A stretch of DNA of 24,843 bases from a virus, in IMG/VR virus record IMGVR_UViG_3300031565_000342, positions 1 to 24,843 of that record; one strand, 5' to 3'. The notes under the pieces were generated by a model. It ran no database searches. It was not told the DNA's origin and saw only the letters and a program-made list of their open reading frames with translations. Below, piece by piece: positions 1 to 24,843 of the stretch (within the stretch, counting starts at the first letter, position 1; the number at the start of each line of letters is the position of its first letter). A program made the position numbers and the translations under genes.

Positions 1-2
1 TG

Positions 3-6960: not shown

Positions 6961-6963
6961 CTA

Positions 6964-7017: not shown

Positions 7018-7034
7018 AAAAAGGAGGTTTTATC

Positions 7035-8114: not shown

Positions 8115-8117
8115 AGT

Positions 8118-8212: not shown

Positions 8213-8233
8213 AATTAAAAGGAGGATTAAACC

Positions 8234-9139: not shown

Positions 9140-9147
9140 TAAATAGA

Positions 9148-9200: not shown

Positions 9201-9218
9201 CAACAATGGAGGTTTGTC

Positions 9219-9680: not shown

Positions 9681-9688
9681 CAAGTGAC
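9668..9688 (+). repeat. Tandem heptamer AAGTGAC x3 across a gene junction
   Basis: Three exact copies of AAGTGAC. The first two contain the last codons and TGA of the upstream gene, and a fourth degenerate copy begins AAATGGC, which contains the ATG of the next gene. No Shine-Dalgarno sequence is left for the downstream gene. Confidence 0.85.
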
Positions 9689-9690
9689 AA

Positions 9691-10116
9691 ATGGCCTATT
9701 CAACGGAAACAGATATCCTGGACCAGCTGGATGAGGACATCCTGATCCAGCTCACCGATGATGCCGATACCGGCGAGGTGGATGACGATAAAGTGAGCCG
9801 TGCCATCGCTGATGCGGACGCGGAGATCGACTCCTACTGCGGTGTGCGGCACACGGTGCCATTTTCGACAGTGCCGGCGGTGATTCTCAAGCTCTCGGTC
9901 GATATCGCAATATATAATCTCTACGCCCGCCGCAAGGGAGCGCCCGAGGATAGAAAGACCCGCTATGATAACGCAATCAGGTTTCTGAAAGACGTGGCCA
10001 AGGGTCTGGCTACCCTGGGAGGGGATGATCCCGACGGAACGCCCCCGGAGTCGCACAAGCCGGATATCGATCAGGCCGACCGGATTTTCACGAGGGATAA
10101 GATGAAGGGATTTTGA
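9691..10116 (+). CDS. DUF1320 head-tail connector protein (Mu gp36-like)
   Basis: A 141-residue protein with the DUF1320 pattern: N-terminal YSTETDILDQLDEDILIQLTD, then VSRAIADADAEIDSYCG and a hydrophobic segment followed by YNLYARRKGAPEDRKTRYDNAI. In Mu-like phages gp36 lies between the capsid and tail genes and is a likely head-tail adaptor. The start has no ribosome binding site because the AAGTGAC repeat runs into it; initiation may depend on coupling to the upstream stop 10 bases earlier. The family call is firm and the precise role less so. Confidence 0.87.
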   Translation: MAYSTETDILDQLDEDILIQLTDDADTGEVDDDKVSRAIADADAEIDSYCGVRHTVPFSTVPAVILKLSVDIAIYNLYARRKGAPEDRKTRYDNAIRFLKDVAKGLATLGGDDPDGTPPESHKPDIDQADRIFTRDKMKGF

Positions 10117-10119
10117 GGC

Positions 10120-10266
10120 ATGAGCGCGCGGGTGCACAAGAAGATCCGCAGGGTCGCGAACAAGAAATTCCTGGCAATGGTGCGGGCCATCGGGAAGCTC
10201 CCCTTTAGACAGAGGCTCTGGTTCGCCTGGCGCATAGTGAGGGGCGTGTCCGCCAAAGGTGGATAA
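10120..10266 (+). CDS. Basic 48-residue protein between DUF1320 and tail completion genes
   Basis: The ATG at 10120 follows the DUF1320 stop by 3 bases and the TAA at 10264-10266 is 3 bases before the next ATG, so it sits snugly in the operon. AAGGGA at 10105-10110 and GAGG at 10115-10118 give ribosome binding. The product is strongly basic (MSARVHKKIRRVANKKF), with a C-terminal LPFRQRLWFAWRIVRG. That LPF..RL..AWRI.RG motif recurs, to my memory, in small unnamed proteins of Mu-like phages. It could bind DNA or the inner face of the neck. The function is unknown. Confidence 0.65.
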   Translation: MSARVHKKIRRVANKKFLAMVRAIGKLPFRQRLWFAWRIVRGVSAKGG

Positions 10267-10269
10267 AAA

Positions 10270-10776
10270 ATGATCGGTATCAGATACAAGATTTATGATC
10301 GGGAATTCAGACAGGCCATCGACGGGCTCACGGGGAGGCTCAAGAACCTCAGCAAGCCCCTGCGCGAATGCGGCCTGGTGGGACTGCGCTCGATCAGTAA
10401 GACCTTCAAGGCGGGCGGCAGGCCCGTGCGCTGGAAGCCCAGCAAGCGCGCCAAGATGACCGGCGGCCAGACCCTGATTGACACCGCCCGGCTGCTGCGC
10501 TCCATCACGATGGAGGTCAAGGCCACGAGCGTATCCTGGGGCACGAAGCTGAAATATGCGGCCATTCACCACCTCGGCGGAACGATTCCGGCAAGGGTTG
10601 TTTTGCCCAGGAGGGCCAAGGCCCTCAGGTGGATCGATAGGCAGGGTAACGTACGGTTTGCAAAAAAGGTGCATATCCCGGCATTCACCATGCCCGCCCG
10701 GGAGTTCCTCGTGATCCAGGATGAGGATTGGCGGGTGTTCAAGCGAATATTCGCGGATTACATAACCGGCACATAA
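10270..10776 (+). CDS. Phage virion morphogenesis / tail completion protein (Mu gpG, P2 gpS-like)
   Basis: A 168-residue protein with the phage_tail_S-type signature: an N-terminal region with REFRQAIDGLTGRLKNLSKPL, then a Trp-rich linker (GRPVRWKPSKRAK), LIDTARLLRSI, and a YAAIHHLGG motif followed by IPAFTMPAREFLV near the end. Members are needed for joining or stabilising heads and tails. AAGGTGG at 10257-10263 gives ribosome binding. Mu itself has gpG further upstream next to gpF; here it lies after DUF1320, an order seen in other Mu-like prophages. Confidence 0.87.
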   Translation: MIGIRYKIYDREFRQAIDGLTGRLKNLSKPLRECGLVGLRSISKTFKAGGRPVRWKPSKRAKMTGGQTLIDTARLLRSITMEVKATSVSWGTKLKYAAIHHLGGTIPARVVLPRRAKALRWIDRQGNVRFAKKVHIPAFTMPAREFLVIQDEDWRVFKRIFADYITGT

Positions 10777-10778
10777 TA

Positions 10779-10807
10779 TGTCATTGCGAGCGTAGCGAAG
10801 CAATCTC
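10779..10807 (+). repeat. Short dispersed-type element (ATTGCGAGC...GCAAT)
   Basis: The 29 bases between two genes begin TGTCATTGCGAGCG and end CGAAGCAATCTC, with ATTGC and GCAAT as inverted ends. From memory, this sequence type is a very widespread interspersed repeat in many bacterial genomes. It runs right up to the ATG at 10808 and has replaced any ribosome binding site there. Confidence 0.7.
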
Positions 10808-11254
10808 ATGAAGGCACTTTTAATCCGCATTAAATCGAAGTTACAGACGGATTTAACGTATGTCAGGGACGGGGACATTTTTATAACCGAGGGTGAAGGT
10901 GTGATCCCGGATCACGTGAAGTCTCCGGCAGTCGGCCTTAAGGATGGGGAGGTGCTCTACAATATCGAAACCGGCGACCAGGAGACCGATGAGCTTTTTG
11001 TAAAGGCCATAGTGTATGTGCAGCTGCAAAAGCCGGAGGCAGCCGTTATGGGTGATGCATCGACGGGACAGAAAGGAGTACTCGATATTATCGCCGACAT
11101 CAAGGCTTCGCTTGATGATGAGAAATTTTCAGGCATTTACGAGGCGGCTATACCGATGTCGGAATCCGAGAGTGAGCTTATTATCGATGATGATACAAAA
11201 ACAGGTTTTCAGATGAAATCAATCATCATGCGGTATATGAAATTAGTCACCTAA
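10808..11254 (+). CDS. DUF1834-like tail terminator protein (Mu gp37-like)
   Basis: A 148-residue protein between the virion morphogenesis and tube genes, the place of the tail terminator. It starts MKALLIRIKSKLQTDLTYVR and has the alternating strand-helix character of tail terminators (VKAIVYVQLQKPEAA, then GVLDIIADIKASLDDEKF and a final strand MKSIIMRYMKLV). Tail terminators cap the tube at its final length and join it to the head. No ribosome binding site precedes the ATG because a dispersed repeat element abuts it; no earlier in-frame start is available, since a TAG within the element blocks the frame. The family name rests on position and general pattern. Confidence 0.68.
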   Translation: MKALLIRIKSKLQTDLTYVRDGDIFITEGEGVIPDHVKSPAVGLKDGEVLYNIETGDQETDELFVKAIVYVQLQKPEAAVMGDASTGQKGVLDIIADIKASLDDEKFSGIYEAAIPMSESESELIIDDDTKTGFQMKSIIMRYMKLVT

Positions 11255-11267
11255 TCGGGAGGATGCC

Positions 11268-11522
11268 ATGAAAGTCTATTACCCAGGCCCGGGACACGAG
11301 ACATACCACCCTGAGCTGGGCATGCTTGTCCCGGACAAACCATTCGATCTGGATGCCAAGACGGCCAATAGATATATCAAGTCCGGTTTGCTCAAGCGGT
11401 GTCCGGAGAATAAAAAAAAGAAGTCAGCGAAAACTGTTCGCCCTGCAAACAGCGAATCAGGAGAGCAAATCAGTGGCATTACAGCTGACGGTCAGATATT
11501 AAAACCCTGTATCTCAGACTGA
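11268..11522 (+). CDS. Small hypothetical protein, tail module
   Basis: An 84-residue protein. The first 45 residues (MKVYYPGPGHETYHPELGML, then KPFDLDAKTANRYIKSGLL) form a small conserved-looking domain similar in style to short proteins (DUF2635-like or Mu gp38-like) found before the tube or sheath gene. Residues 45-84 are Lys/Ser-rich and look disordered. GGGAGGA precedes the ATG. It is followed only by a 37-base leader for the first tube gene. The function is unknown. Confidence 0.55.
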   Translation: MKVYYPGPGHETYHPELGMLVPDKPFDLDAKTANRYIKSGLLKRCPENKKKKSAKTVRPANSESGEQISGITADGQILKPCISD

Positions 11523-11540
11523 CAACGAAAAATAATCTTC

Positions 11541-11554
11541 CGATTAAAAGGAGG
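11541..11554 (+). promoter_or_regulatory. Ribosome-binding block CGATTAAAAGGAGG of tube gene A
   Basis: An exact 14-base match to the block in front of tube gene B (12941-12954), with a near copy before the major capsid gene (8211-8225, one extra A). An A/T-rich enhancer plus perfect AAAAGGAGG marks the genes expected to be translated most. Confidence 0.7.
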
Positions 11555-11559
11555 CAATT

Positions 11560-12846
11560 ATGGGCACACCACTCACGGGCCGCGAGATCCTGATCGGGCT
11601 CAAGAAGGCCGCAAAGGCCGCGGCCGGATCCACCACCGTCGACGCCGACTCGGCGGCGGGTCAGAAGGTGCTGAACGTCGCTGCAACCACCGATTTCGCG
11701 GCCGGCGAGACAGTGAAGATCGGCGCGGATACTGCCAGGGAGGAGTATGGCGTGATCAATACGATCCAGGCGGGAGAATCGCTCACCCTGCACGACAATC
11801 TTACCTACACTCACACCCTGGTCCAGGCCGATCCGGTGGTCAATGACGTGGTGTGGCGATACGCGCACCCGTGCGGGGCAGGCGACGGGATCCTGATCAA
11901 ATCGGAGAGCGTGAAACAGACCATCGAGGAGCTCCTCGATGACAGCCTCGGGCTCGATTTCATCCAGAGAACGGATCCCGGCAAGATCGAGGCTTCCGGG
12001 GCATTAGAGGCCTTTCTCAGGTACGAGGGCCTGGACGTGGCCATTGCGCTCGCGATGGGCGTCGCGGGCACACCGAGCCAGCAGGGCGGGACGGCGGCCT
12101 GGGCAAACGCCTACACGCTCAAAGATGATCTGACCGGGTATTTCGCAACCCTGGCCATGCTCAAGAAGAGCGATAAGGTCTTCGAGTATCCCTCGGTGAA
12201 GCTGCACGGCTTCAAGATCAGCGGGGAAATGAACGCGCCGCTCACCATCTCCTTGAGCGGCATTGCAAACAAGCTGGTCCTGGCCTCCACGATCAACACC
12301 GCGGCCACGATGGCCGCCATTGACTATCCGGATAAGGGAAACCGGATCATCTTCAACAAGGATGCCACCTTCAAGATGAACGATAAATCGGGTGCGGCCC
12401 TCGATGACAGCAACAAGATCTACCCTGCGAGCGTCGAGTTGACCTTTGCCAGGCAGATAGAGGGAGACCTCACGGCCGGCCACGAGGACATCAACGAGCC
12501 GGATGAGAATAATGTTCCGGAAGCAATGCTGACCCTGAACTTCCCGCGCTACAACGACGCCAACCATGCCTTCTTCACCGACTGGGAGGCCTTCACCGAG
12601 AAGAAGATGGAGATCTACTTCAAGGGGCCGCTCATTGCGACCACCTACTACTACGAGCTCAAGATCTCCATGCCGTGCCTCAAGGTCATCAACCCCGATG
12701 CGGCAATCGGGGGGCCGGGCAAGATCCCCGCGACCCTGAGCCTCAGGCTCCTGGGCACCGACACGGCGCCCGAGGGAATGACCGGGATCACCCTGCCGTT
12801 TCAGATCGATGTGCAGAATAAGCGGACAACCGATCCGCTCGCATAA
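11560..12846 (+). CDS. Tail tube-like protein A, with inserted beta domain
   Basis: A 428-residue protein, paralogous to the next gene over its whole length except for about 80 extra residues (18-100). Shared landmarks are an N-terminal PLTGREILIGLKKA, then EASGALEAFLRYEGLDVAIA, KLHGFKISGEMNAPLTISLS, YNDANHAFFTDWEAFTEKKM and a C-terminal PLPFQID-type VQNKR. A tandem large pair between terminator and chaperone genes fits major tail tube proteins of long-tailed siphophages. The insert (STTVDADSAAGQKVLNVA, then FAAGETVKIG) is a beta-type module resembling one in the tail tip protein near its residue 930, probably displayed on the tube surface. Blocks of 68 and 72 bases are identical to copy B. 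The tube role is inferred. Confidence 0.72.
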   Translation: MGTPLTGREILIGLKKAAKAAAGSTTVDADSAAGQKVLNVAATTDFAAGETVKIGADTAREEYGVINTIQAGESLTLHDNLTYTHTLVQADPVVNDVVWRYAHPCGAGDGILIKSESVKQTIEELLDDSLGLDFIQRTDPGKIEASGALEAFLRYEGLDVAIALAMGVAGTPSQQGGTAAWANAYTLKDDLTGYFATLAMLKKSDKVFEYPSVKLHGFKISGEMNAPLTISLSGIANKLVLASTINTAATMAAIDYPDKGNRIIFNKDATFKMNDKSGAALDDSNKIYPASVELTFARQIEGDLTAGHEDINEPDENNVPEAMLTLNFPRYNDANHAFFTDWEAFTEKKMEIYFKGPLIATTYYYELKISMPCLKVINPDAAIGGPGKIPATLSLRLLGTDTAPEGMTGITLPFQIDVQNKRTTDPLA

Positions 12847-12940
12847 AGGTTCAAGGGTTCACGCGCAGCGCAGGCGCTTGCGCCGCGTGAAGGTTCAAAG
12901 GTTCAGGGCTAACTCAGAACGGGGAACCCTGAACGGTAAA
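12847..12940 (+). repeat. Intergenic repeat spacer 4 with strong hairpin
   Basis: GGTTCA-type units at both sides surround a GC-rich hairpin at 12858-12891: outer stem TTCACGCG/CGCGTGAA, 2-base bulge, inner stem GCGCA/TGCGC, 6-base loop. AACGGGG and AACCCTG heptamers follow up to the ribosome binding block of tube gene B. There is no U-run after the hairpin. Confidence 0.8.
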
Positions 12941-12954
12941 CGATTAAAAGGAGG
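12941..12954 (+). promoter_or_regulatory. Ribosome-binding block CGATTAAAAGGAGG of tube gene B
   Basis: Identical to 11541-11554. The ATG follows at 12960, a 5-base spacer. Confidence 0.7.
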
Positions 12955-12959
12955 TAAAC

Positions 12960-14006
12960 ATGGCAAATCCATTGACAGGAAGAGAGATCCTGATCGGCCT
13001 CAAGAAGGCCACCCCGTGGGGTACGGCGGCTGCTTGTGGGGCAAACGACGGGGTCCTGATAAAATCGGAGAGCCTGAAGCAGACCATCGAGGAGCTGCTC
13101 GATAATTCCCTGGGGCTGGCCTTCATCCAGCGGACCGATGCCGGCAAAATCGAGGCCTCCGGAGGACTCGAGGCCTTTCTCAGGTACGAGGGCCTGGACG
13201 TGGCCATCGCGCTCATCATGGGCGTCGCGGGAGATCCTACCTTGCTTGACACCACCGCATACTCCAACAGCTACACGCTCGCCACAAATCTGGCCGGCCT
13301 TTTCGCCACCATCGCCATGCTCAAGAAGAGCGATAAGGTGCACGAGTACCCCTCGGTGAAGCTGCACGGCTTCAAGATCAGCGGGGAAATGAACGCGCCG
13401 CTCACCATCTCCTTGAGTGGCATCGCGGATGAGCTCGAGCTGGCTTCTGCCATCAACACCTACGCCACGATGGCCAACATCACCTATCCGGACAAGGGAA
13501 ACCGGGTGATCATGAACTCGGACGCCACCTTCAAGATCAACGATGAATCCGGGGCCGCCCTGGGAGATGGCGACAAGATCTACCCAGCGAGCTTCGAGCT
13601 GAGCTTCAACCGCCCTGTCGGGGGTGATCATCTGGTGGGCTCTACCACCATCGATGAGCCGGGGGGCACCGATTTTCCAGAGGCCACGGTTACGTTGAAT
13701 TTTCCGCGCTACAACGACGCCAACCATGTTTTCTTCACCGACTGGGAGGCCTTTACCAGGAAGAAGATGGAGATCTACTTCAAGGGCGCGCTCATCGAGG
13801 CGACCTATTACTACGAATTGAAGATCAGCATCCCCAATTGCAAGGTTGTCAATCCCGACGCGGCAATCGGGGGGCCGGGCAAGATCCCCGCGACCCTGAG
13901 CCTCAGGCTCCTGGGCACCGACACGGCGCCCCTGGGAATGACCGGGATCACCAAGCCCTTCCAGATCGACGTGCAGAACAAGCGGGACACGGATCCGTTG
14001 ACATAA
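12960..14006 (+). CDS. Tail tube-like protein B (paralogue without the insert)
   Basis: A 348-residue protein collinear with protein A but lacking the insert of about 80 residues after LIGLKKA. All other landmarks are shared (KLHGFKISGEMNAPLTISLS, NDANHVFFTDWEAFTRKKM, GKIPATLSLRLLGTDTAP). The ribosome binding block is identical to that of copy A. Divergent stretches lie between perfectly identical DNA blocks (12190-12257 against 13350-13417, and 12700-12771 against 13860-13931). Two tube-type proteins could form one mixed tube, or one could be a tube and the other a minor or decorated variant comparable to the split forms known in some siphophages. No sheath gene is present, so a contractile tail is unlikely. 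Confidence 0.72.
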   Translation: MANPLTGREILIGLKKATPWGTAAACGANDGVLIKSESLKQTIEELLDNSLGLAFIQRTDAGKIEASGGLEAFLRYEGLDVAIALIMGVAGDPTLLDTTAYSNSYTLATNLAGLFATIAMLKKSDKVHEYPSVKLHGFKISGEMNAPLTISLSGIADELELASAINTYATMANITYPDKGNRVIMNSDATFKINDESGAALGDGDKIYPASFELSFNRPVGGDHLVGSTTIDEPGGTDFPEATVTLNFPRYNDANHVFFTDWEAFTRKKMEIYFKGALIEATYYYELKISIPNCKVVNPDAAIGGPGKIPATLSLRLLGTDTAPLGMTGITKPFQIDVQNKRDTDPLT

Positions 14007-14010
14007 TAGA

Positions 14011-14058
14011 CAATTGTCATTGGTCATTTGCCATTGGTCATTTGTCATTGATCAATTG
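14011..14058 (+). repeat. Intergenic heptamer spacer 5 (ATTGGTC/ATTTGTC type)
   Basis: Successive units ATTGGTC, ATTTGCC, ATTGGTC, ATTTGTC, ATTGATC are bounded by CAATTG at both ends (14011-14016 and about 14053-14058). It sits just before the AAGGGAGG of the tail chaperone gene and belongs to a different heptamer family from the other spacers. Confidence 0.8.
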
Positions 14059-14071
14059 AAGGGAGGTAAAC

Positions 14072-14452
14072 ATGTCATACGTGGAAATCGTGGAAGATGA
14101 AGAACAGTTCGATCTTCCGATCGGCGAGAGCATCTTCCACCTCAAACGACTGGACAGCGAGGTCTACGAGAGGATCGTCAAGCAGCACACAACGACGAAG
14201 TGGCGGCGCGGCCAGCGGGTGAAGGAGACCGACGATTTCGCGGTCAACAAGGATCTGCTCGATCACCTCATCGACGGCTGGGAAAAGGTGAAATCGCCTA
14301 CCACGGGGAAAGACGTACCGTGCACCAGGGAGAGCAAACTCAAGCTCCCGAGTTCGACCAAGGTGGACATCATCGAGGCCTGCGATGCGGATCATATCAC
14401 CACCGGCCCTCCCGAGGGAGAGGATAAAAAAAAACAGCTTGAGCAATCTTGA
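14072..14452 (+). CDS. Tail assembly chaperone, short form (lambda gpG / Mu gp41 role)
   Basis: A 126-residue protein between tube and tape measure genes, the invariable place of tail assembly chaperones. It starts MSYVEIVEDEEQFDLPIGES, and its second half contains LLDHLIDGWEKV; the C-terminus is charged (EGEDKKKQLEQS). AAGGGAGG lies before the ATG. Near its 3' end the codons AAA AAA AAA fall on an A9 run (14426-14434), and the overlapping downstream frame continues to the tape measure start. The short form is expected in excess, with a minor frameshifted G-T product. The role comes from position and architecture; the sequence itself is too diverse for a family match. Confidence 0.75.
   Translation: MSYVEIVEDEEQFDLPIGESIFHLKRLDSEVYERIVKQHTTTKWRRGQRVKETDDFAVNKDLLDHLIDGWEKVKSPTTGKDVPCTRESKLKLPSSTKVDIIEACDADHITTGPPEGEDKKKQLEQS
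14426..14434 (+). other. Programmed frameshift/slippage site, A9
   Basis: Nine A residues in phase with AAA AAA AAA in the chaperone frame. A -1 shift meets a stop at 14440-14442; only a -2 or +1 shift (or RNA polymerase slippage losing one A or gaining two) enters the open downstream frame. Mu is known to use a -2 shift at the equivalent point. Confidence 0.7.
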
Positions 14453-14765
14453 GGAATACGTCCAATTCACCCTGGATTATCCCAAGCAAAACTGCACGCA
14501 ATGCGAGGAGAACTACGACACCGACGGCATCGAATCCGATTGCGAGAGTTGCGGGCTGCCGGATCTATCCAGCCAGGATCAAGAGATCCTGGATCTCTAC
14601 CACGAAATCAACTCACAGTTTGTCTACGATTTCCATGCCCTGGAGCTGGTCTTCGAGGTCCATGCTATCCGCTGCACCAGATCGGAGGCAAAGAAGCTCG
14701 TGAGAAAGCTCATCATGATCCACAAACTTGAAGGCACCAGGAAACCTGAACGAGAACATGGCTAA
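14433..14765 (+). CDS. Tail assembly chaperone extension (T region), made by frameshift
   Basis: The frame entered after the A9 run runs for about 110 codons to the TAA at 14763-14765, giving a fusion of about 230 residues with the upstream gene. No credible independent start exists: an in-frame ATG at 14385 lacks a ribosome binding site. The segment contains two paired cysteines, CTQC and CESC, spaced by 14 residues, which suggests a small zinc ribbon. A helical part follows (QEILDLYHEINSQFVYDFHA) and a basic end (SEAKKLVRKLIMIHKLEG). In lambda the T part binds the tail tube protein while G coats the tape measure. Its stop overlaps the tape measure start by 8 bases. Confidence 0.7.
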   Translation, partial: NSLSNLEEYVQFTLDYPKQNCTQCEENYDTDGIESDCESCGLPDLSSQDQEILDLYHEINSQFVYDFHALELVFEVHAIRCTRSEAKKLVRKLIMIHKLEGTRKPEREHG

Positions 14766-17700
14766 TAAAGTCTACATAACCCTCGAGGTGGATGATAGAG
14801 GCACCGCGGTTGTCAAAGGCTTCGACAAAAATACCCAGAAGGCCTTCGACAACATGAAGGCCCAGGCACACAAGGCATCCACCGGCATGGGCGGCTCTTT
14901 GCAAAAACTGAAGCAGCACTGGCTCGCCGTCACCGCGGTGATGACAGTGGCGATATTGGCCGCGAAAAAAATTATCGATGTCGCCCAAAAATGGGTCGAT
15001 GCCGCATCCAACCTCCAGGAGGTCACGAGCAAATTCAACGTCGTGTTTAAGGATCAGATAAAGAGGGCCGAGGAGTGGGCTGCGACTCTTGTCAAGAGCT
15101 ACGCGATGTCCCGGCGCGAGGCGAAACAATACCTCGCCTCCATGCAGGATCTGCTCAAGCCGATGGGCATGGCCAGCAAGGAAGCCGGTAAGCTCTCCTA
15201 TGAGGTCGTGAAGCTCGCCGCGGACCTGGGGAGCTTCAACAATATGCCCACCGCCCAGGTGATGGGCGACATCCAGTCGGCCCTGGTGGGCAACTACGAG
15301 ACCATGAAAAAATACGGCGTGGTGCTCAATGCCACCGTGGTGCAGGAAAAGGCCCTGGCAATGGGCCTTGCGGGCACCAAGGAGGAGCTCACCGCGGCAC
15401 ACAAGGCCCAGGCAGCCTATAGCCTGATCGTCGGGGGCTCCAAGGACGCAATTGGTGACATGGCCCGCACCTCCGGGGACTACGCAAACGTCTCAAAGAA
15501 GCTCGAGGGTAAGATCGAGGATGTCTCGGCGGCATTGGGAAATAAGTTGATTCCCCGTCTCACAGACGTCAAGAAAGGCCTCATCGAGGTAATTGACCTG
15601 ACTATGAAGTGGCTGGGACCCGAAAAGACGATCGCTGAGGAGCTCCTTGAAGGCTACCTGAAACGGCAGAAGAGCATCGTCGAGCGGATTGCCGAGATAC
15701 GGCAGGCCTTAGTTGAGGCAACCAAAACCCCCCGGTATTTACGCGAGCTCACCGGGGAAGCAGCGATAGACATCGCTGAAACACACACTGAGCTCGTCTC
15801 GCTCAACAAAGAGCTTGCCATCCTGGAGAGGAAGATAGGTTTCGTCAGGCAGGGAATGAGCGGAGCGGCGGAAGAGAGCAAAGAATCAACTGAAAAGCTC
15901 GCAAAGCCGATGAAGGATTATCTCTATATCCTGAAAGATGCGTCCGATGAGATGGATATTATGGCAGCACAGACCCAGGACGCATGGAAGAATTATGGCG
16001 AGCTGATGGCTTCGAATGTTGCAAAGAACGAATCCTTTCTTTACACGCTGGGCGAGGTCTCCGATGAGATGGACATTCTGGAGACCCAGACCCAGGAGGC
16101 ATGGAAGAATTACGGCGAAGCCCTGACTTCAGATGTCGTAAAGCCGACACAGGCATTTTTATATACCCTGAAAGAGGTCTCCGATGAGATGGACATTCTG
16201 GAGACCCAGACCCAGGAGGCATGGAACCATTACGAGAAAGGAGTCAAGAGATCGTATGCAGGCACCAAAGAACTGGCAGAGGCCGCCAGGGAGCTCTACC
16301 GGGATCTGAGAAAATATGAGGCGGACTACTATAAGTACAGCGATAAGCTCATAGAGATTCAGGCACAGCGCTATCGGGACCTGGGCATCGAGGAGGCCGC
16401 TATAGAGGTCTGGGTCACCAAGATGAAAAGGGAGGCATGGAAGGCCAGGACCCTGGCCGCAGGCTCCTTTTTTGAAGGCATGAAGGTGGGCTATGAGGAC
16501 ATGAAAGACGCCCAGGAGACCTGGGCGGAGCACGGAAAATACCTCTTCAATACCATAACGGACGAGTGGAAATCGGCGGTGCACGATATGGTGGACGCCT
16601 TCATCGCCGGCGAGAAAGAGAAACGGAACGTAGCCGAGATCACCTGCGACGTGCTCTCGAACATATCGGGCCGCATGGCCAAGCGCATGTTCGACGCTGC
16701 CATCGATAAGATCATCCAGCTGATCGGTGCCGAGATCGGCCTCGGTGTCTCGGGTGCCGGCGCATCGGGGGCGATGGCCGGAGGAGTCCCGGGGGCGCTG
16801 AGCCAGATCGGCATTTACCTGGCGAGCGGCGTCGGCGCCATGCTGGCAGGCAGGTTCCTGGCGGAGCAATTCCGGGCCGGGGGAGGGCCTATACTGAGCC
16901 CGTCGAAGGGATGGATCGAGCGCCACCCCGCAGGCGGCGTGATCCGGGAGGGTTCCGGGGCCACCGATGATGTCCTGCTCGGCTATACACCGGGGCTCAG
17001 GCACTGGGGCATGGGCGGCGAATATGTCATCAACCCCGAGTCCACGGCACGCCACCGGGAGCTCCTGGATCTCATCAACCGGGACCGGGGCCTGGCCACC
17101 GGCGGATATCTGGACCGGCGATATCAGGAGGGAAGCCAGATCGACTGGCGGCTCGCAGCGGATATGCTGGCGATAGGAGGGGCGGGTACGGCCGCACACG
17201 GTTTCGTCAAGGGAGGCCCTCCCGGGGCCTTAGCCGAGCTCATCACCTTTTTTGCCGTGGCGGTCCCGGCCATGTTCGCCGGCAAGCTACTCGCCAATCA
17301 ATTCAAGGCACGGGGCGGCCCCGTCGATATGGGCCACGGGCTGGGCGATTTCATTGGAGACATCGTCGGCACCGTCACCTCGCCTCTCGAGGGCCTTCCC
17401 ATTATCGGCGACGATATCAGGGCCATCAACGACTATCTGAAGAAGCGGCTGGGCTGGCTCGAGGGCATGATGGATCCGGAAGAGCTCTGGGAGCATGTCC
17501 TGACTTTGATCCGCACGCCCCTGGAAGCGGTGGCCAGGGATCTGGTCACACCGGGGAAATACTACTCCAATCCCCTGGATACGATCGGCAGCGTGCTGGA
17601 TCTGCTCAAAAAAGAAACCGAGCCGGAGCGGGAGCTGCTCAGCGAGCTGCTCAGCTTCCAGCAGGGAGGCCTGGCCACCAGGCGCTCGGTGATCGGAGAG

Positions 17701-17943
17701 AGAGGGCCTGAGTGGGCGGTCCCGACTTACGAGCCGGAGCGCTCGCGCTTCCTGCGGGATGTGGGAATGGAGCCCGAAAGGCTCGCCCGGGCATTGGCCG
17801 AGCAGATGGCCGGGGCCGAGACCGAAACCCACATCCACCTCCACATGGACGGCCGCGAGGTCACCCACGTGGTGGCCCGGCGCGCCGTGGGGGACCGGGA
17901 TGTGCAGAAACTCTTTGCCAAAGCCCTGAAGATACCGGGCTAG
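14758..17943 (+). CDS. Tail tape measure protein
   Basis: The start chosen is the ATG at 14758 (MANKVYITLEVDDRGTAVVK), which overlaps the chaperone stop; an upstream TTG at 14728 is possible but less typical. Of 1061 residues, a hydrophobic segment lies near 56-76 (LAVTAVMTVAILAAKKII), then the conserved minor-tail region (LASMQDLLKPMGMASKEAGK, FNNMPTAQVMGDIQSALVGN). A long helical centre includes three tandem repeats of 39-40 residues at about 394-490. Two related hydrophobic Gly-rich modules lie near 675-711 and 819-855. The C-terminal region has VIGERGPEWAVP, common at tape measure ends, and HIHLHMDGREVTHVV. By the usual 1.5 angstrom per residue rule, the tail would be of long siphovirus type. 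Confidence 0.92.
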   Translation: MANKVYITLEVDDRGTAVVKGFDKNTQKAFDNMKAQAHKASTGMGGSLQKLKQHWLAVTAVMTVAILAAKKIIDVAQKWVDAASNLQEVTSKFNVVFKDQIKRAEEWAATLVKSYAMSRREAKQYLASMQDLLKPMGMASKEAGKLSYEVVKLAADLGSFNNMPTAQVMGDIQSALVGNYETMKKYGVVLNATVVQEKALAMGLAGTKEELTAAHKAQAAYSLIVGGSKDAIGDMARTSGDYANVSKKLEGKIEDVSAALGNKLIPRLTDVKKGLIEVIDLTMKWLGPEKTIAEELLEGYLKRQKSIVERIAEIRQALVEATKTPRYLRELTGEAAIDIAETHTELVSLNKELAILERKIGFVRQGMSGAAEESKESTEKLAKPMKDYLYILKDASDEMDIMAAQTQDAWKNYGELMASNVAKNESFLYTLGEVSDEMDILETQTQEAWKNYGEALTSDVVKPTQAFLYTLKEVSDEMDILETQTQEAWNHYEKGVKRSYAGTKELAEAARELYRDLRKYEADYYKYSDKLIEIQAQRYRDLGIEEAAIEVWVTKMKREAWKARTLAAGSFFEGMKVGYEDMKDAQETWAEHGKYLFNTITDEWKSAVHDMVDAFIAGEKEKRNVAEITCDVLSNISGRMAKRMFDAAIDKIIQLIGAEIGLGVSGAGASGAMAGGVPGALSQIGIYLASGVGAMLAGRFLAEQFRAGGGPILSPSKGWIERHPAGGVIREGSGATDDVLLGYTPGLRHWGMGGEYVINPESTARHRELLDLINRDRGLATGGYLDRRYQEGSQIDWRLAADMLAIGGAGTAAHGFVKGGPPGALAELITFFAVAVPAMFAGKLLANQFKARGGPVDMGHGLGDFIGDIVGTVTSPLEGLPIIGDDIRAINDYLKKRLGWLEGMMDPEELWEHVLTLIRTPLEAVARDLVTPGKYYSNPLDTIGSVLDLLKKETEPERELLSELLSFQQGGLATRRSVIGERGPEWAVPTYEPERSRFLRDVGMEPERLARALAEQMAGAETETHIHLHMDGREVTHVVARRAVGDRDVQKLFAKALKIPG
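15937..16235 (+). repeat. Three tandem repeats inside the tape measure gene
   Basis: Units start at about 15937, 16054 and 16174 (periods 117 and 120 bases). Each encodes SDEMDI followed by a QTQ.AW..YG-type helix. The second and third share 53 identical bases (16054-16106 and 16174-16226), so the last duplication is recent. Unit gain or loss would change tail length by about 40 residues per step. Confidence 0.85.
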
Positions 17944-17952
17944 GGGAATCCA

Positions 17953-18363
17953 ATGGCCGAGAAAGAGATGTACGACTACCTGACCGTGAAGACCCCGGAC
18001 AACGACGTGACGCTGTCAACCCCGAAGCCGTGCGAGGTTATCGAGGACTGCGGCAGGAGCCAGGTAATCCATCCGGGAGACGATGGATCAGAGGAGGTAA
18101 TCACCCGCGACCCCGATGTGGTGTGCTATGCCACGGTGCTCTTCCCCGATCGTTTGAACGCCTCCGATGCGGGGACCATCCTGGATTTCTATCTCTCGGA
18201 CACCAAGGGCAACTGCATGGCCGAGAGCTTCAAGTGGGAGCACCCCTCGGACGGCCATACTTACGTGGTGAAATTCCGGTCCGACGTCACCAGGATGCTG
18301 AAATATACGATCTTCGGGTTTCCCCATATCAAGCTCAAGGTGATCGGGAAGATAGCCGACTGA
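17953..18363 (+). CDS. Probable distal tail protein
   Basis: A 136-residue protein between tape measure and tip protein. It is beta-rich, beginning MAEKEMYDYLTVKTPDNDVT, and has YATVLFPDRLNASDAGTILD in the middle with a strand-rich end (TRMLKYTIFGFPHIKLKVIG). AGGGGA lies 5 bases before the ATG. The place between tape measure and tail-tip hub is that of the distal tail (Dit-like) protein that closes the tube. I recognise no specific family, so the role is positional. It is followed by the longest heptamer spacer in the window. Confidence 0.6.
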   Translation: MAEKEMYDYLTVKTPDNDVTLSTPKPCEVIEDCGRSQVIHPGDDGSEEVITRDPDVVCYATVLFPDRLNASDAGTILDFYLSDTKGNCMAESFKWEHPSDGHTYVVKFRSDVTRMLKYTIFGFPHIKLKVIGKIAD

Positions 18364-18494
18364 TGAGGTTCAGGGGTTCAAAGATTCAGGGTTGAGAGGC
18401 TTAAAGGTGCAGAGGTTTAAGGGTTTAACCTTTGAACCCTAAATCCTGAACGGGGAACCCAGAACCCTGAACGCTGAACCCAGAACGGAAAACG
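18364..18494 (+). repeat. Intergenic heptamer repeat spacer 6, longest
   Basis: 131 bases with a forward half (AGGTTCA, GGGGTTC, AGGGTTG, AGAGGTTT) and a complementary half (TGAACCC, CCTGAAC, AACGGGG, CTGAACC). It can fold into a long imperfect stem centred on GGGTTTAACC. It continues to the ATG of the tip protein, leaving no clear ribosome binding site. Confidence 0.8.
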
Positions 18495-21400
18495 ATGTTA
18501 TCATTAGATGGGACACAGCAGGCAATCGTCGATGCCGACAACAAGGATGAGGTCTCCTGGCTCTTCGAGGTGGACCGCAATGGCAACGGCACTGTCGATT
18601 ACTACTGGTCCACCAAGGCCAAGACCTGGAGCGCCCAGGCCTACACCTTCAAGGTAACCGATTTCAGCCCCATTTCGATGAAGCGGAATCGCTCCGAGGA
18701 CGGCATCATCACGCCCGGGGAGTTCTCTTTCACTATCACCAACAAAGATAATGCCCTCTCGCCCGGTGATTTCTCGGGCGGCAATGTCACCGTCAAGCTC
18801 GTGATCAAGGCCGGGGCAGACGAGGCGGTGATCCGTACCTGGAATTTCGACTTCGTGGGGATCCCCGAGGCTGCGGAGCAGACCCTGGTATTTCGCTGTC
18901 GCGACTGGCTCCAGAAATATCTCGAGGGCTCCTGGTCCAATACCCCCTTGATCCATTACCTGTTTCCACGCAAATACGCGGCCGACGGGGGGGGTAAGAA
19001 GAGCAGGTTTAACGTCACCGTAGAGGCATCCAATGCCTGCGTGCCGGTGATCTTGGGGAAGCCCACCATCCCGATAACGCCCATCATCAACCAGAAGATC
19101 ACCAACGGCAGCATGGAGAAGAACGCAAACTGGACTGCCGTGGGCACCCCGGTGATCTGCCAGCAGAGCTCCGCCCAGGCACACGGCGGCACTTACTCCT
19201 GGTATGTCTCCGCGGATACCGCCGGCGACGGCGTGAAAGGCGCGACCTTTCCCACCAACAACGGGTATCTTTATAATGTTGTCTTCTGGGTGTATTCCGC
19301 CGAGGCCCACGCCTGGGACGTGAAGGTTCGAAAAGGGGATAACTCGGGCTGGATAACCGCTACGGGACTTTTCGTTACCAGGCCGAACACCTGGACGAGA
19401 TTCGAACGCAGGTTTCTGGAGGGCGCCGCCTCGGAAGGCCCCGGGGCCTACGTACAGTTTGAGGCCCATGAGGACGGCGCGCGCGATATCTATATCGACG
19501 ATGTTTCCATCATCGAGCGCTTCTATCTGGTGGGTCCCGATACGCCCACCTATACCTATCATGATGTCCGGAACCTGCCGCCGTTCGGCTCTCAAAGATA
19601 CAAGTGGTGGGATTACAACGCGAAAGAGAAGAATCTCACCGGCACTGACGGCAACAGCTACCACGTCATGCAGGTGATATTGACCGATGCGGATGGTGAC
19701 GGCATATCCGATAGCAACCTGGTCTACCGCGAGGGCGACCGGTACCTGCCGATCGGACTCCAGTATACCCGAGACGATACGAGCGGCATAACGAATCCGG
19801 GCGATGCGCTTGATTATATCCTCCAGGATTTCGGCATCCCGGCCGCCAGGATCGATGCCACCACGCTGGCCACCGTGAAATCTACGTACTCGGGCTGGGG
19901 CCTTACCTGGAACGCGGGTTTCTGGTTTCAGGAGCCGAGGGAGGAGATCCTGGCCAGGCTCCTGGTGATGTGCCACACCGAGCTTATCATCAGGGATAAG
20001 ATCTACTTCAAGGTCCACTCAAAGACATCCCAGAAGACGATCACCAAGGCCCACGTGCAATCCCAGGAGGAAAAGGGACCTAGTAGCTTCGAGTATCACA
20101 GCATCCAACTGCCCGAATTGAGCGACTCGGGCTACGTGGCGTTCGAGGACGGCGACGGATGCCTGAGCAATCTCATGAGCTGGCCTGTTTCGGTCAAGGG
20201 CGTCTATGATCATCGCTCCGACGCGGTGGTACGCGCCGATTACGTTCAGAATTCCCAGAATGCGCAGAGGATCGGGACCCTGGCCCTCCAGCGGAAATTT
20301 CTGCCGATGGCCGATGCGTCGTTTCTCGGCAAGGGGATCCTCCTCGCCCTGGAGCCCGACGATGTGATCACCCCCAGCCATGCCGACTACGGGGGCACCT
20401 ACCAGGTGCTCATCGATTCCATCGAGTTCGGCAGGGATCTCGATGTGGCGATTGAGGCCACCCGGTTCAAGGAGGCCCTCGATGATTGGGGCGATCTCGC
20501 GCCCTCCGCGGTCTCCCTGCCCGACGATGATGATTCATGCAGCGTCTATGAGGTCATGGTATCCGGCCCGGATGGGCTCGGCGACTCCGGCAATCCTATG
20601 TGCAACGTGATACCCGGCAGATTTCGGATAGGGCAAACCGGAAACTATATCCTCTTCGATCCCTCCAGGCCGATCCAGCATTTCGTCGAGGGCGGGGTCG
20701 TCCGCATGAAAATAGGGGATCTCGGCACCGAGGATTACGGCATCGAATTCCTGGATCATGCCGGGATTTCCATCCTGAAGCTCGACGGCGCAGGAGGTAA
20801 TCTGCTATCGGGCTGGTCCCTGAGTGAGCATAAATTTACGTGCCAGAGCGGTCAGGTGGGCCTGAATGCCGAGGTGACCGAGGACACCGACTGGCGCATC
20901 TGGGCGGGACACGCTACCCCGGGATCCGCTCCCTTCCGGGTGGATGAGGCAGGCAATCTCTACTGTAGCTTGATCCATGCCATCGGCGGAACTATCGGCG
21001 GCTGGACCGTCGGCGCCACCACGCTCGCCTCTGAGAATATCACGCTGGATTCCGACAACGATAAGATCACGGTCAATGGTATCACCATCGACGGGGCGAA
21101 TAACCGCATCAGGAGCGCGAATTACGTATCCGGATATATGGGCGCAGGCTTCACGCTTGAGCCGGATCTCCTGGAAGTGGGAAATGCCGCGATCCGGGGT
21201 ATCATCAGGACCGCGGTATTTCAAAAGGATATCATCAGTGCTGTCGGAGGCAATCTTGCCGTGATCCCTTCCGATGTGCTCGCCGCCGATATGACCGCCG
21301 AGGATGCCTCCACTCTTACCATCGAAGGAAATGAGACTTTCGCCGTAGGGGATCTCCTTAGGATCAAGGACGCAGCGGATGACGAATGGATGCAGGTCAC

Positions 21401-23021
21401 CAACATCGCGGCAGCTCCCATCTATATGGTCACCAGGGATAAGGCAGACTCCTACGGGGCGGATGCAAACCCTGCGTGGAAGAAGGGTGCGGCCGTGGTG
21501 AACTATCTCCGGGCCGGCCAGAGCTTCATTTATATCACCGCCTCGGAGATCAATGCCCCCTATCTCGCGCTGATCACCCACGCGGGCTCGCCCTGGACCA
21601 GCCTCACTACCAGGTTTAGAGTTGGCAACTTAAACGGATATTTAGGGTATTCTGCCGATATTTACGGAATCGGCATTGGCAGCAGTGCAACGGGTAAAGC
21701 TAACCTCACTTTTGATCCCACGAACGGAATAAGGCTGAGGATAGCGACCGCGGATAAGATCGTGCTCGATAACGCTGGCAATGTGTATATAGCGGGTACC
21801 GTTAGGATTGGTGGGAGCGGCGCCGTATTAGCCTCCTCTATTGACGGCTGGAAACACGCTATCGATGCCACCAAGATCGACGGTGGGAAAATCTACACCA
21901 ATACGATTATAGCTGCACAGATAAAAGGCGCTGATTTCGGCACCCTGACTATCACGAGCGGGAAAATCGCCATCAATACGGCAGACGCCCTGGAGATCCA
22001 GGCGGCTGGGAATATCAAAGTGCTGGCCGGTGGCGATATTATTATGAATCAGGGTGATGCTGATCCTGCTCTTATTAAATGGGGGACTGTGCATAATTTT
22101 GGGGCGGGATTCATTGCATCAAGAGGGTTGTGTCTATGGCCTACTACATCAGATCAGGATTATTTTTATATTGGGTACGATCCTGTAAATGAAGTTGTGA
22201 AAAGATACAAATATTTCTATGCGTATGCAAATCGGATTTATTTTAATGCCACTCAGGATGCCACTCACTATGCTGAGATATATTTGTATACTGCTGCTGC
22301 TGCCGGTTGGGTACAATTAAGAGCACGTTCAGGTGGTGATCATATCCAAGTAACCCTTGATGGTGGTGCGCTTGCCTTTTATCCGACTGGCAATCTCATT
22401 AGTTTAGGAAAAGTAGGCGCTAAATGGGTGGATGGCTTTTTTGCGGGTAATTTGGTGGTGGATGGGGTTGTCCGTATTGGAGGTGTCGGGTCAGCTAAAG
22501 TCAACATTCATTCTGCCACAAACACCAATCCAATTTTGATCTATGAGGACACCGACGACAGTATAACACATAATTTTATAGTTGATGCAAATGATGGTGG
22601 TTCTATCGGCTTATACGCTAATGGAGGGATCTGCACTATTTTATTGGTTGGTGCGGCGGGGACAGGTAATTTTACAGGCTGCGTCGCAGACGGAACTTGT
22701 GAGATATTTACTGAGGATGCCCTGGTAGTAATAGCTGATATAATGAGAACCGGAAGCGGAAAATTCGATGAATTTGGACATGAACACTTTGATATGAGAA
22801 AGTTGTTCAAAAAATATCCCTACCTTATTATGCAAAGTGAAATGGAAATAGAGGATAGCAAGAAAGGCCCTCGCTATTTTGACAGACTTGGTGCAAAGTC
22901 TGATCTTCTTTATCGAGCAACGATGCAACTTAAAGAACAAAATGACTTCCTCAAGTGCGAAATCACACGGCTTGAGGGATTGATTTCGAAAATTAGTAGA
23001 AATGACCGCTTAGGGTCATAG
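18495..23021 (+). CDS. Tail tip hub and fibre protein with inserted carbohydrate-binding-like module
   Basis: A 1508-residue protein. Residues 1-195 look like the hub region of siphovirus tip proteins (FSPISMKRNRSEDGIITPGE, then LQKYLEGSWSNTPL and VPVILGKPTIPITPI). Residues about 196-342 are a jelly-roll insert of CBM4/9 style (ITNGSMEKNANWT, NTWTRFERRF, ARDIYIDDVSI). The hub resumes at YLVGPDTPTYTYHDVRNLPP and includes EILARLLVMCHTELIIRDKI (about 475-500). From about 830 comes a beta-rich fibre (GGTIGGWTVGATTLAS), a small beta module near 930, and a terminal part (about 1425 on, FDEFGHEHFDMRKL, then a coiled end). From about 22000 the DNA becomes strongly AT-rich (about 33 percent GC in 22141-22260), which suggests a recently acquired receptor-binding tip. 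No ribosome binding site is seen. Confidence 0.8.
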   Translation: MLSLDGTQQAIVDADNKDEVSWLFEVDRNGNGTVDYYWSTKAKTWSAQAYTFKVTDFSPISMKRNRSEDGIITPGEFSFTITNKDNALSPGDFSGGNVTVKLVIKAGADEAVIRTWNFDFVGIPEAAEQTLVFRCRDWLQKYLEGSWSNTPLIHYLFPRKYAADGGGKKSRFNVTVEASNACVPVILGKPTIPITPIINQKITNGSMEKNANWTAVGTPVICQQSSAQAHGGTYSWYVSADTAGDGVKGATFPTNNGYLYNVVFWVYSAEAHAWDVKVRKGDNSGWITATGLFVTRPNTWTRFERRFLEGAASEGPGAYVQFEAHEDGARDIYIDDVSIIERFYLVGPDTPTYTYHDVRNLPPFGSQRYKWWDYNAKEKNLTGTDGNSYHVMQVILTDADGDGISDSNLVYREGDRYLPIGLQYTRDDTSGITNPGDALDYILQDFGIPAARIDATTLATVKSTYSGWGLTWNAGFWFQEPREEILARLLVMCHTELIIRDKIYFKVHSKTSQKTITKAHVQSQEEKGPSSFEYHSIQLPELSDSGYVAFEDGDGCLSNLMSWPVSVKGVYDHRSDAVVRADYVQNSQNAQRIGTLALQRKFLPMADASFLGKGILLALEPDDVITPSHADYGGTYQVLIDSIEFGRDLDVAIEATRFKEALDDWGDLAPSAVSLPDDDDSCSVYEVMVSGPDGLGDSGNPMCNVIPGRFRIGQTGNYILFDPSRPIQHFVEGGVVRMKIGDLGTEDYGIEFLDHAGISILKLDGAGGNLLSGWSLSEHKFTCQSGQVGLNAEVTEDTDWRIWAGHATPGSAPFRVDEAGNLYCSLIHAIGGTIGGWTVGATTLASENITLDSDNDKITVNGITIDGANNRIRSANYVSGYMGAGFTLEPDLLEVGNAAIRGIIRTAVFQKDIISAVGGNLAVIPSDVLAADMTAEDASTLTIEGNETFAVGDLLRIKDAADDEWMQVTNIAAAPIYMVTRDKADSYGADANPAWKKGAAVVNYLRAGQSFIYITASEINAPYLALITHAGSPWTSLTTRFRVGNLNGYLGYSADIYGIGIGSSATGKANLTFDPTNGIRLRIATADKIVLDNAGNVYIAGTVRIGGSGAVLASSIDGWKHAIDATKIDGGKIYTNTIIAAQIKGADFGTLTITSGKIAINTADALEIQAAGNIKVLAGGDIIMNQGDADPALIKWGTVHNFGAGFIASRGLCLWPTTSDQDYFYIGYDPVNEVVKRYKYFYAYANRIYFNATQDATHYAEIYLYTAAAAGWVQLRARSGGDHIQVTLDGGALAFYPTGNLISLGKVGAKWVDGFFAGNLVVDGVVRIGGVGSAKVNIHSATNTNPILIYEDTDDSITHNFIVDANDGGSIGLYANGGICTILLVGAAGTGNFTGCVADGTCEIFTEDALVVIADIMRTGSGKFDEFGHEHFDMRKLFKKYPYLIMQSEMEIEDSKKGPRYFDRLGAKSDLLYRATMQLKEQNDFLKCEITRLEGLISKISRNDRLGS

Positions 23022-23034
23022 GAAAGGAGAGGAT

Positions 23035-23583
23035 ATGGGCGATAAAGCCAAGAGTAAGGCCAAGGCCGAAAATAGGGAGACCATCAAGATCAAGAATAGG
23101 TATTTCGAGGAAAGGGTCCTGGGGCCCATGAGGCAGGATGGATCGCAGCTGGTATCGAGGAATTTCCAGTCACTCATGGATAAAAAGATTTTCCCCCATG
23201 AGTATAAGCCGAATTGGTGGGTCGGGAGAGCTTTTGATAAGATCGTCCAGGAGATGAAGGCTTATATTAAAGCGCGCCAAGATCTCATCCGTCAGTATGC
23301 CAAAAAACACGAGAAGGACGGCAAGGAGACAGACGAGAACGGAAAGATCATCAAGGAGTGGAAGAAAGGTGACCCGATGTCCTTTGCCGATGGGACCCCG
23401 GTTTGGGAGGATTATGATGCCTTCGTGAAGGATTTGGAGGAGCTCCAGGAGATCGAGATCGACCTCGGCATCTGGAAGATCGAGTTCGACCCGGAGAAAG
23501 GGCCTGACTCCACGCCGGGAGAGGACCAGATCCTCATCCCACTCCTCAAGGAGCCACAGGAAGGCAAAGAGAAAGACCAATAA
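23035..23583 (+). CDS. DUF1617-like phage protein
   Basis: A 182-residue, highly charged protein. The centre (FDKIVQEMKAYIKARQDLIR, then GKETDENGKIIKEWKKGD) and the following YDAFVKDLEELQEIEIDLGI resemble DUF1617 proteins, found after tail tip genes in many siphophages. AAAGGAGAGG stands just before the ATG, and the gene begins 13 bases after the tip gene stop. The N-terminus is Lys/Ala-rich. It may be a fibre-assembly or minor tail protein; the function is not known. It is the last structural-type gene before the methylase. Confidence 0.6.
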   Translation: MGDKAKSKAKAENRETIKIKNRYFEERVLGPMRQDGSQLVSRNFQSLMDKKIFPHEYKPNWWVGRAFDKIVQEMKAYIKARQDLIRQYAKKHEKDGKETDENGKIIKEWKKGDPMSFADGTPVWEDYDAFVKDLEELQEIEIDLGIWKIEFDPEKGPDSTPGEDQILIPLLKEPQEGKEKDQ

Positions 23584-23607
23584 TTTCGGATGAAAAAGGA
23601 GCAAGCA

Positions 23608-23727
23608 GGGAGAATTTGCCTCTCCCCACCGATCCCATTTTTGGAAACGGGATCATCCCATTGCCGGGACTGCTCCTAAGACAAGACCATTTAAGCAGAA
23701 ACGGCACTGGTTGTAAAGGGAGAGGCA
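23608..23727 (+). promoter_or_regulatory. Methylase leader with sequestering complement to its ribosome binding site
   Basis: TGCCTCTCCC at 23617-23626 is a perfect 10-base complement of GGGAGAGGCA at 23718-23727, the ribosome binding region of the methylase (ATG 23731). TCTCCC can alternatively pair with GGGAGA at 23608-23613 in a local hairpin, so two mutually exclusive folds exist. A second hairpin lies between them, GATCCC (23631-23636) with GGGATC (23649-23654), plus an inner TTT/AAA. The layout resembles the translational control of Mu mom, although no Com-like zinc protein is recognisable here. Confidence 0.5.
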
Positions 23728-23730
23728 TAC

Positions 23731-24498
23731 ATGAACAGTCCTTTAAGCTATGTAGGAGGCAAATCACGGCTGGCCAGGCAAATTATAGAGCGGTTCCCCA
23801 AGCACACTTGTTACTGCGAGGCATTCGCCGGCGGGGCCTGGGTCTTTTTTAAGAAGGAGCCCTCCAAGGTGGAGATTCTCAACGATAGGGATGAAGACCT
23901 GGTGAACTTATATCGGATCGTCCAACAGCATTTTGAGGAGTTTGTGAAGCAGTTTAAATATATGGTCATCTCCAGGAAGATCTTTGAGATCCTGAAGCAT
24001 CAGGATCCCTTCACACTGACCGATATCCACCGGGCGGTGAAATATTTTTACCTGCTCAAAACAAGCTTCAGCGCACGGCTCAATAAGCCGGGATTCGGCT
24101 ACGGGACAGACAGTCCCTCGCGGCTCAACCTCTTGACCCTTGAGGAGACCATCCTTGAGATGCACTGGCGCCTGGCCAGGGTAACCATCGAGAATCTCGA
24201 CTGGAGGGATTGCATCAACCGGTATGATCGCCCTCACACGCTATTTTATCTGGATCCTCCTTATTATCAGGCAAAAGACTATAGGTATAACTTTAAGGAG
24301 GAGGATTTCGTCGCTCTAGCGGCCATTTTGGGCCAGATAAAGGGTAAATTCGTGCTCTCCCTCGGTGATCATCCTCTAATGCGGAAATTCTTCAAATCGT
24401 TTAAAATAGAGCAACTCACAGTGAAATATAGCACGGCCAGGAAAGAGGAGAGCAAAGGCAAGCCCAGGCAGGAACTATTGGTAAATAATTTTGGTTGA
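23731..24498 (+). CDS. dam: DNA adenine N6-methyltransferase, D12 (Dam) class
   Basis: A 255-residue protein. An N-terminal YVGGKSRL (7-14) and AFAGGAWVFF (31-40) form the SAM-binding motif I region, followed by the acidic ILNDRDEDLVNLY (49-61). The catalytic DPPY is at 175-178 (FYLDPPYY). The order motif I then DPPY, and the length, fit the alpha-class D12 family, which methylates adenine in GATC or related sites. It occupies the last-gene position where Mu carries the mom DNA modification gene, so protection of phage DNA from restriction or control of transposition is a reasonable role. GGGAGAGG at 23718-23725 is the ribosome binding site, and its leader may hide it. The stop lies inside the first terminator hairpin. 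Confidence 0.92.
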   Translation: MNSPLSYVGGKSRLARQIIERFPKHTCYCEAFAGGAWVFFKKEPSKVEILNDRDEDLVNLYRIVQQHFEEFVKQFKYMVISRKIFEILKHQDPFTLTDIHRAVKYFYLLKTSFSARLNKPGFGYGTDSPSRLNLLTLEETILEMHWRLARVTIENLDWRDCINRYDRPHTLFYLDPPYYQAKDYRYNFKEEDFVALAAILGQIKGKFVLSLGDHPLMRKFFKSFKIEQLTVKYSTARKEESKGKPRQELLVNNFG

Positions 24499-24528
24499 AA
24501 AAGGGCCTTAATAGGCAGTTTTTCAACC
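24493..24528 (+). terminator. Terminator-like hairpin 1 (overlaps methylase stop)
   Basis: GGTTGAAAAA (24493-24502) pairs with TTTTTCAACC (24519-24528), 10 bp, with an inner GCCT/AGGC stem and TAAT loop. The A-run and T-run flanks allow termination in either direction. Confidence 0.7.
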
Positions 24529-24543
24529 GTTTAAGACCCATTT

Positions 24544-24589
24544 AATCGATGAATTGATCGCCGAATTGAACGGCGATCTCATCGATTTT
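24544..24589 (+). terminator. Terminator-like hairpin 2
   Basis: AATCGATGA (24544-24552) pairs with TCATCGATT (24579-24587). After a 3-base bulge, GATCGCCG (24556-24563) pairs with CGGCGATC (24571-24578), loop AATTGAA. Seventeen base pairs in all, ending in TTTT at 24586-24589. Confidence 0.75.
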
Positions 24590-24603
24590 CAAGTGTGATT
24601 ATA

Positions 24604-24642
24604 ACCTGTCGATCCGGAGTGCCCGGATTGAACAGGTCTTTT
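24604..24642 (+). terminator. Terminator-like hairpin 3
   Basis: ACCTGT (24604-24609) pairs with ACAGGT (24632-24637); CGATCCGG (24610-24617) pairs with CCGGATTG (24623-24630) with one G-T pair, one bulged A and loop AGTGC. CTTTT follows at 24638-24642. Confidence 0.7.
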
Positions 24643-24668
24643 GCGCCCTGATCCAACCCGGCCGATTT

Positions 24669-24711
24669 GAGTCGCACCTTGTGTTGCAACGAGTCGCACT
24701 TTGCGTTGCAA
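24669..24711 (+). repeat. Two direct repeats, putative transposase binding sites at phage right end
   Basis: GAGTCGCACCTTGTGTTGCAA (24669-24689, written here as GAGTCGCACC then TTGTGTTGCAA) and its copy at 24691-24711 match at 19 of 21 positions with a period of 22 bases. Mu has two abutting 22-bp MuA sites, R1 and R2, at its right end, the same spacing. They lie between the terminators and the recJ fragment, just where attR is expected. Confidence 0.75.
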
Positions 24712-24715
24712 TTGT
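24709..24715. other. Predicted phage right end (CA) and 5-base target duplication
   Basis: CA at 24709-24710 is the only CA at the outer edge of the second repeat and would be the terminal dinucleotide of a TG...CA element of the Mu family. The following five bases ATTGT (24711-24715) would be the host target duplication. From 24713 the sequence reads in frame into RecJ. The boundary is inferred to within a few bases. Confidence 0.55.
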
Positions 24716-24843
24716 AAAAAGAAAAGGATAACAATCTACGGTGATTACGATGCAGATGGAGTGACCGCAACAGCTCTACTGGTCGATTTTTTCTCCAGAT
24801 TGGACACCCCGATTTCCTTCTATATCCCACACAGACTTGAAGA
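24713..24843 (+). pseudogene. recJ: recJ, single-stranded-DNA exonuclease, interrupted by the phage and cut by the window end
   Basis: The frame at 24713 reads CKKKRITIYGDYDADGVTAT and continues to the window end. YGDYDADG contains DxDxDG, motif I of the DHH phosphoesterase family, and the following TALLVDFFSRL is typical of bacterial RecJ. RecJ normally has about 60-80 residues before this motif. Here the frame runs back only into the phage repeats and a stop at 24668, so the N-terminal part is missing. The simplest reading is insertion of the phage into the 5' part of host recJ, with the rest of the gene beyond the window. A TTG at 24701 could start a shortened product. RecJ acts in recombination repair, and its loss is usually tolerated. 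Confidence 0.75.

What the first reader, a model, noticed from the sequence alone, without database searches (positions are those of the whole stretch)
24660..24843. attR with paired transposase sites and disruption of recJ
Two 21-base repeats with a 22-base period and a terminal CA are followed directly by an in-frame RecJ fragment that begins near its DHH motif. This predicts that the missing recJ 5' part lies beyond the left prophage end, flanked by ATTGT, and that the left end carries sites related to TTGCAAC.CAA.GTGCGACTC.
Basis: partly seen in the sequence, partly recalled or inferred. Interest (0 to 1): 0.66.

Follow-up and report, generated by a model that had tools for sequence, protein, structure and literature searches.

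The report
Mu-like phage right end in recJ
The window ends at the right tip of a transposing (Mu-like) phage joined to a piece of the bacterial DNA-repair gene recJ, which is what such jumping phages leave behind; the only mild surprise is that the phage tip may end in TA instead of the usual CA.

Summary
Two 21-base repeats (19/21 identical, 22-base period) at 24669-24711 are far above chance, and an in-frame RecJ fragment follows. They are the R2 and R1 transposase sites of a Mu-like transposable phage. More than 20 other right ends, plus phage Mu and Mushuvirus, carry the same tandem 22-bp pair, and flanking DNA differs between relatives. None of 48 related records has a DHH (RecJ-type) domain, so recJ is host DNA.

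In 17 relatives, Mu and Mushuvirus the phage ends exactly 24 nt from the start of the R1 core; G021 and G054 confirm this with perfect 5-bp duplications and TG starts. In the window this puts the junction at 24716-24718. The CA at 24709-24710 is an internal site feature, also present in R2, and ATTGT is probably phage DNA. The window ends ...TTGTA(A), not CA. Six other right ends also lack CA but have TA there, so a TA-ended subgroup is possible; TA ends are published for Leptospira prophages.

The left end lies outside the record, so the recJ 5' part and the duplication could not be tested. Resident prophage versus packaged host DNA is also open.

The parts
1..24716 (+). Mu-like phage, left part missing (no transposase genes in the record); right end at 24716 or 24717
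   Evidence: Portal_Mu, Phage_Mu_F, Mu-like_Pro, Mu-like_gpT, terminase PHROG
23731..24498 (+). D12-class N6-adenine DNA methyltransferase, last phage gene before the right end
   Evidence: PF02086 E 2e-28
24605..24649 (+). Hairpin plus T-run and GCGCCCT tail just upstream of the right-end sites, shared with relatives
24672..24693 (+).
   Evidence: tandem with R1 at 22 bp
24694..24717 (+).
24718..24843 (+). Host DNA: recJ fragment (frame 24719-24841), starting about codon 70, before motif I GDYDADG
   Evidence: PF01368; aligns to T. thermophilus RecJ from residue 73; absent from 48 related records

Best explanation
This is the attR junction of a Mu-like transposable phage. Two tandem 22-bp transposase sites (R2 24672-24693, R1 24694-24717) let the phage's MuA-type transposase (not in this record) hold the right end, cut it at 24716/24717 and join it to a near-random target, here about codon 70 of a bacterial recJ read in the same direction as the phage. 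Shown: the sites, their geometry, the recJ fragment, its absence from relatives, and different host DNA at the right ends of relatives. Inferred: that a MuA-type transposase acts at these sites in this phage, that the cut was staggered with a 5- or 6-bp duplication, and that recJ was interrupted in the molecule that was sequenced.
For: Mu-type head genes. Same paired sites at right ends of relatives, Mu and Mushuvirus. CA exactly 24 nt from the R1 core in 17 relatives. TSD and TG left end in G021 (CCAGC) and G054 (TTCAT). G021 encodes a Mu-transpos_C transposase, an AAA ATPase and a CI-type repressor. No DHH domain in 48 related records. RecJ match.
Against: The window's own left end, transposase and duplication are not in the record. 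At the predicted position it reads TAA, not CA. Only 126 bases of recJ are present.
Confidence: 0.85

Rival explanations
1. One reading: the phage ends at CA 24709-24710 and ATTGT is the 5-bp target duplication.
For: CA is the canonical terminal dinucleotide, and the position predicted by the 24-nt rule lacks it.
Against: The same CA occurs in R2, which is not an end, and at offset 17 in R1 of G004, G010, G021, L124, L132, L137 and L138, all of which have CA again at offset 24; in G021 the duplication proves that offset 24 is the end. ATTG after the CA matches G001 in register, and TGTAA matches L131, whose contig stops there.
Confidence: 0.1
2. The recJ flank is not from a resident prophage but from host DNA packaged with, or joined during replication of, the phage; recJ was hit in one or a few molecules only.
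For: Mu-like phages replicate by transposition to many sites and package host DNA at both ends (PMC5977238). The flank is about one read long. Contigs L131 and L136 stop at or within 3 nt of the predicted end. G061 has left and right flanks that do not match.
Against: The assembly gives one clean flank. Relatives G021 and G054 are single insertions with matching duplications.
Confidence: 0.4
3. The recJ fragment is phage cargo carried near the right end.
For: None found.
Against: No DHH domain in 48 related records; the fragment lies outside the transposase sites, where relatives have unrelated host DNA.
Confidence: 0.02

Closest known systems
Escherichia phage Mu right end (R1-R2; NC_000929)
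   Same: Two sites at 22-bp period, core 24 nt from the end; Mu-type portal, F, protease and gpT proteins
   Different: Site sequence differs; Mu ends in CA, the window reads TA(A); low protein similarity to cultured phages
Mushuvirus mushu (BK063464)
   Same: Terminase homologue (29.9% over 92%) and the same right-end geometry
   Different: Firmicute host in the record; canonical end
D3112/B3-type Pseudomonas transposable phages
   Same: Terminase homologues at 28%; transposable lifestyle (PMC5977238)
   Different: D3112-group genomes start TGT and finish ACA (PMC5977238)
Leptospira TA-TA transposable prophages (WETA1; PMC8705779)
   Same: Ends in TA instead of TG/CA, if the TA reading of the window is right
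   Different: B3/Tn552-type transposase and 6-bp duplication there; only the right end is seen in the window

Membership tests
Mu-like transposable phage | Mu-type head module (portal, F, protease I, gpT) | tested here: met
   Pfam matches, E 2e-27 to 2e-100
Mu-like transposable phage | Paired transposase sites at the right end, 22-bp period, 24 nt from core to end | tested here: met
   Pair met; offset fits at 23-24 but without CA
Mu-like transposable phage | TG...CA termini | tested here: inconclusive
   Right end reads TTGTA(A) at the expected place; left end absent
Mu-like transposable phage | DDE transposase (MuA) and ATPase (MuB) | not testable with these tools
   Left part missing from the record; present in relative G021
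Mu-like transposable phage | 5- or 6-bp target duplication | not testable with these tools
   Left flank missing; shown in relatives G021 and G054
RecJ exonuclease | DHH-family N-terminal domain with motif I | tested here: met
   PF01368; RecJ structures
RecJ exonuclease | Motifs II-IV including DHH | not testable with these tools
   Window ends after 41 residues
TA-TA transposable prophages (Leptospira type) | TA at both phage ends with 6-bp duplication | tested here: inconclusive
   TA at 24715-24716 in the window; left end absent; G025 is compatible

The most novel reading that the evidence does not exclude
The window belongs to a lineage of Mu-type phages (Mu-like capsid genes, 22-bp paired sites, 24-nt geometry) that ends in TA instead of CA, outside the Leptospira group in which TA ends were reported. 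The window, L131, L127, L361, G025, L125 and L126 lack CA and have TA at offset 23-25; in G025 a right end ...TATA, six bases and a left-end-like TACC... are adjacent.
Probability: 0.45. Interest if true: 0.5.

Novelty: new member of a known kind. Interest (0 to 1): 0.3.

Why it matters
It shows how to read the ends of uncultured Mu-like phages: find the paired 22-bp sites and count 24 nt, rather than taking the first CA. This changes the inferred target duplications and the base at which a host gene is interrupted. A TA-ended Mu-type group would bear on how strictly this transposase family needs CA ends.

Tried and rejected
The exact end-site pattern found no relative in viral contigs and one stray Pseudomonas match that was not followed up. 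A tail-protein query found no relatives. L384, a third match to the L131/L361 end pattern, lies in unrelated DNA without a detected Mu-type transposase. Duplications were not found for G001, G004, G010, G013 and G022 (left end missing, decayed or not located) and did not match in G060 or G061. G020 has a candidate, CTCCT at L101:8454, with a weak left site. Rfam gave only one sub-threshold chance match.

Full report
What the window is. It is one virus record of 24,843 bases. Its genes are those of a Mu-like phage: terminase, Mu portal, Mu F, Mu protease I, Mu gpT and, as the last gene, a D12 methyltransferase. The left part, where transposase genes would lie, is missing.

Check of the observation. 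The two repeats are exact to the pattern GAGTCGCACNTTGNGTTGCAA at 24669-24689 and 24691-24711, and none is expected by chance. 19/21 identity at period 22 is the best in the window, against at most 16 in 60 shuffles. The frame 24719-24841 encodes KKRITIYGDYDADGVTATALLVDFFSRLDTPISFYIPHRLE. It matches PF01368 and solved RecJ proteins, aligning from residue 73 of T. thermophilus RecJ. About 70 codons are therefore missing, and the fragment starts before motif I, not at the DHH motif.

Relatives. The terminase finds 66 loci, and records were opened at their ends. A tandem pair of 22-bp sites sits at right ends of relatives, with differing DNA beyond it. Phage Mu and Mushuvirus show the same layout. 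A scan for site pairs with ACA at 24 nt hits almost only right ends. A hairpin element just upstream served as a bait that does not depend on the terminus, and gave further right ends.

Where the phage ends. In 17 relatives a CA lies exactly 24 nt from the first base of the R1 core. G021 confirms the rule: right ...CGGACA|CCAGC, left CCAGC|TGGGG with an L1-like core again 24 nt in and further sites about 100-160 nt in. Its left part encodes a Mu-transpos_C transposase, an AAA ATPase and a CI-type repressor. G054 confirms it again, with TTCAT on both sides and the left end TGTTGACTGGCAGGTGGTATGAGA. In the window, 24 nt ends at 24717. It is equally present in the window's R2, and in R1 of G004, G010, G021, L124, L132, L137 and L138, which have CA again at offset 24. 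The bases after it, ATTG, match the closest relative G001 in register, and TGTAA matches L131, whose contig stops exactly there. ATTGT is therefore probably phage DNA. The predicted duplication is AAAGA, or AAAAGA if the end is TA with 6 bp.

The missing CA. The window reads TTGTA(A). Six other right ends also lack CA and have TA at offset 23-25; two of them, L127 and L361, are related to each other. G025 shows ...TATA, six bases, then a left-end-like TACC.... TA-TA ends with 6-bp duplications are published for Leptospira prophages, with the remark that all Mu and B3 types described before were TG-CA (PMC8705779). A TA-ended subgroup is a fair reading, but the offsets are not constant (23, 24, 25), and a misread or mutated base in the window cannot be excluded.

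recJ. No DHH domain occurs in 48 related records, and the flank of G001 is another gene, an FAD/pyridine-nucleotide oxidoreductase. So recJ is host DNA, and the insertion interrupts it in the same orientation as the phage. Whether this was a stable lysogen is open. Mu-like phages package host DNA at both ends (PMC5977238), the flank is only 126 bases, and relative G061 has flanks that do not match each other.

Verdict. This is an ordinary attR of a Mu-like transposable phage, recognised correctly in kind. The boundary should be moved by 6-7 bases, and the duplication and left-end predictions corrected accordingly.

Noticed in passing
window 24605-24649; also L078, L088, L090, L093, L108, L116, L124-L132, L136-L138, L156, L361: A hairpin (CCTGTCG...CGAACAGG) with a T-run and a conserved GCGCCCT tail sits about 25-55 bases upstream of the right-end sites in many relatives. 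It looks like a terminator, but the tail beyond the T-run is conserved too; no Rfam family.
   Followed up: partly
window 11560-12846 and 12960-14006: Two neighbouring genes encode proteins 77% identical over 329 residues: a tandem duplication of a phage structural gene of unassigned family.
   Followed up: partly
L116:2400-2900 (G025, about 22.5-22.8 kb): The right end of one Mu-like prophage and the left end of a second, different one are separated by only 5-6 bases.
   Followed up: partly
L087:6819-8546 (G010): Prophage G010 appears to have lost its left end and the N-terminal part of its transposase; only a 446-residue C-terminal frame remains.
   Followed up: no
G021 L089:2099-2164; G024 L107:170-224: Left ends carry two further sites in opposite orientation about 45 bases apart, G021's about 100-160 bases from the tip.
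   Followed up: partly
window 8173-8220, 14009-14055, 18445-18490: Short 21-22-base repeats between genes, of low complexity and unrelated to the end sites.
   Followed up: no
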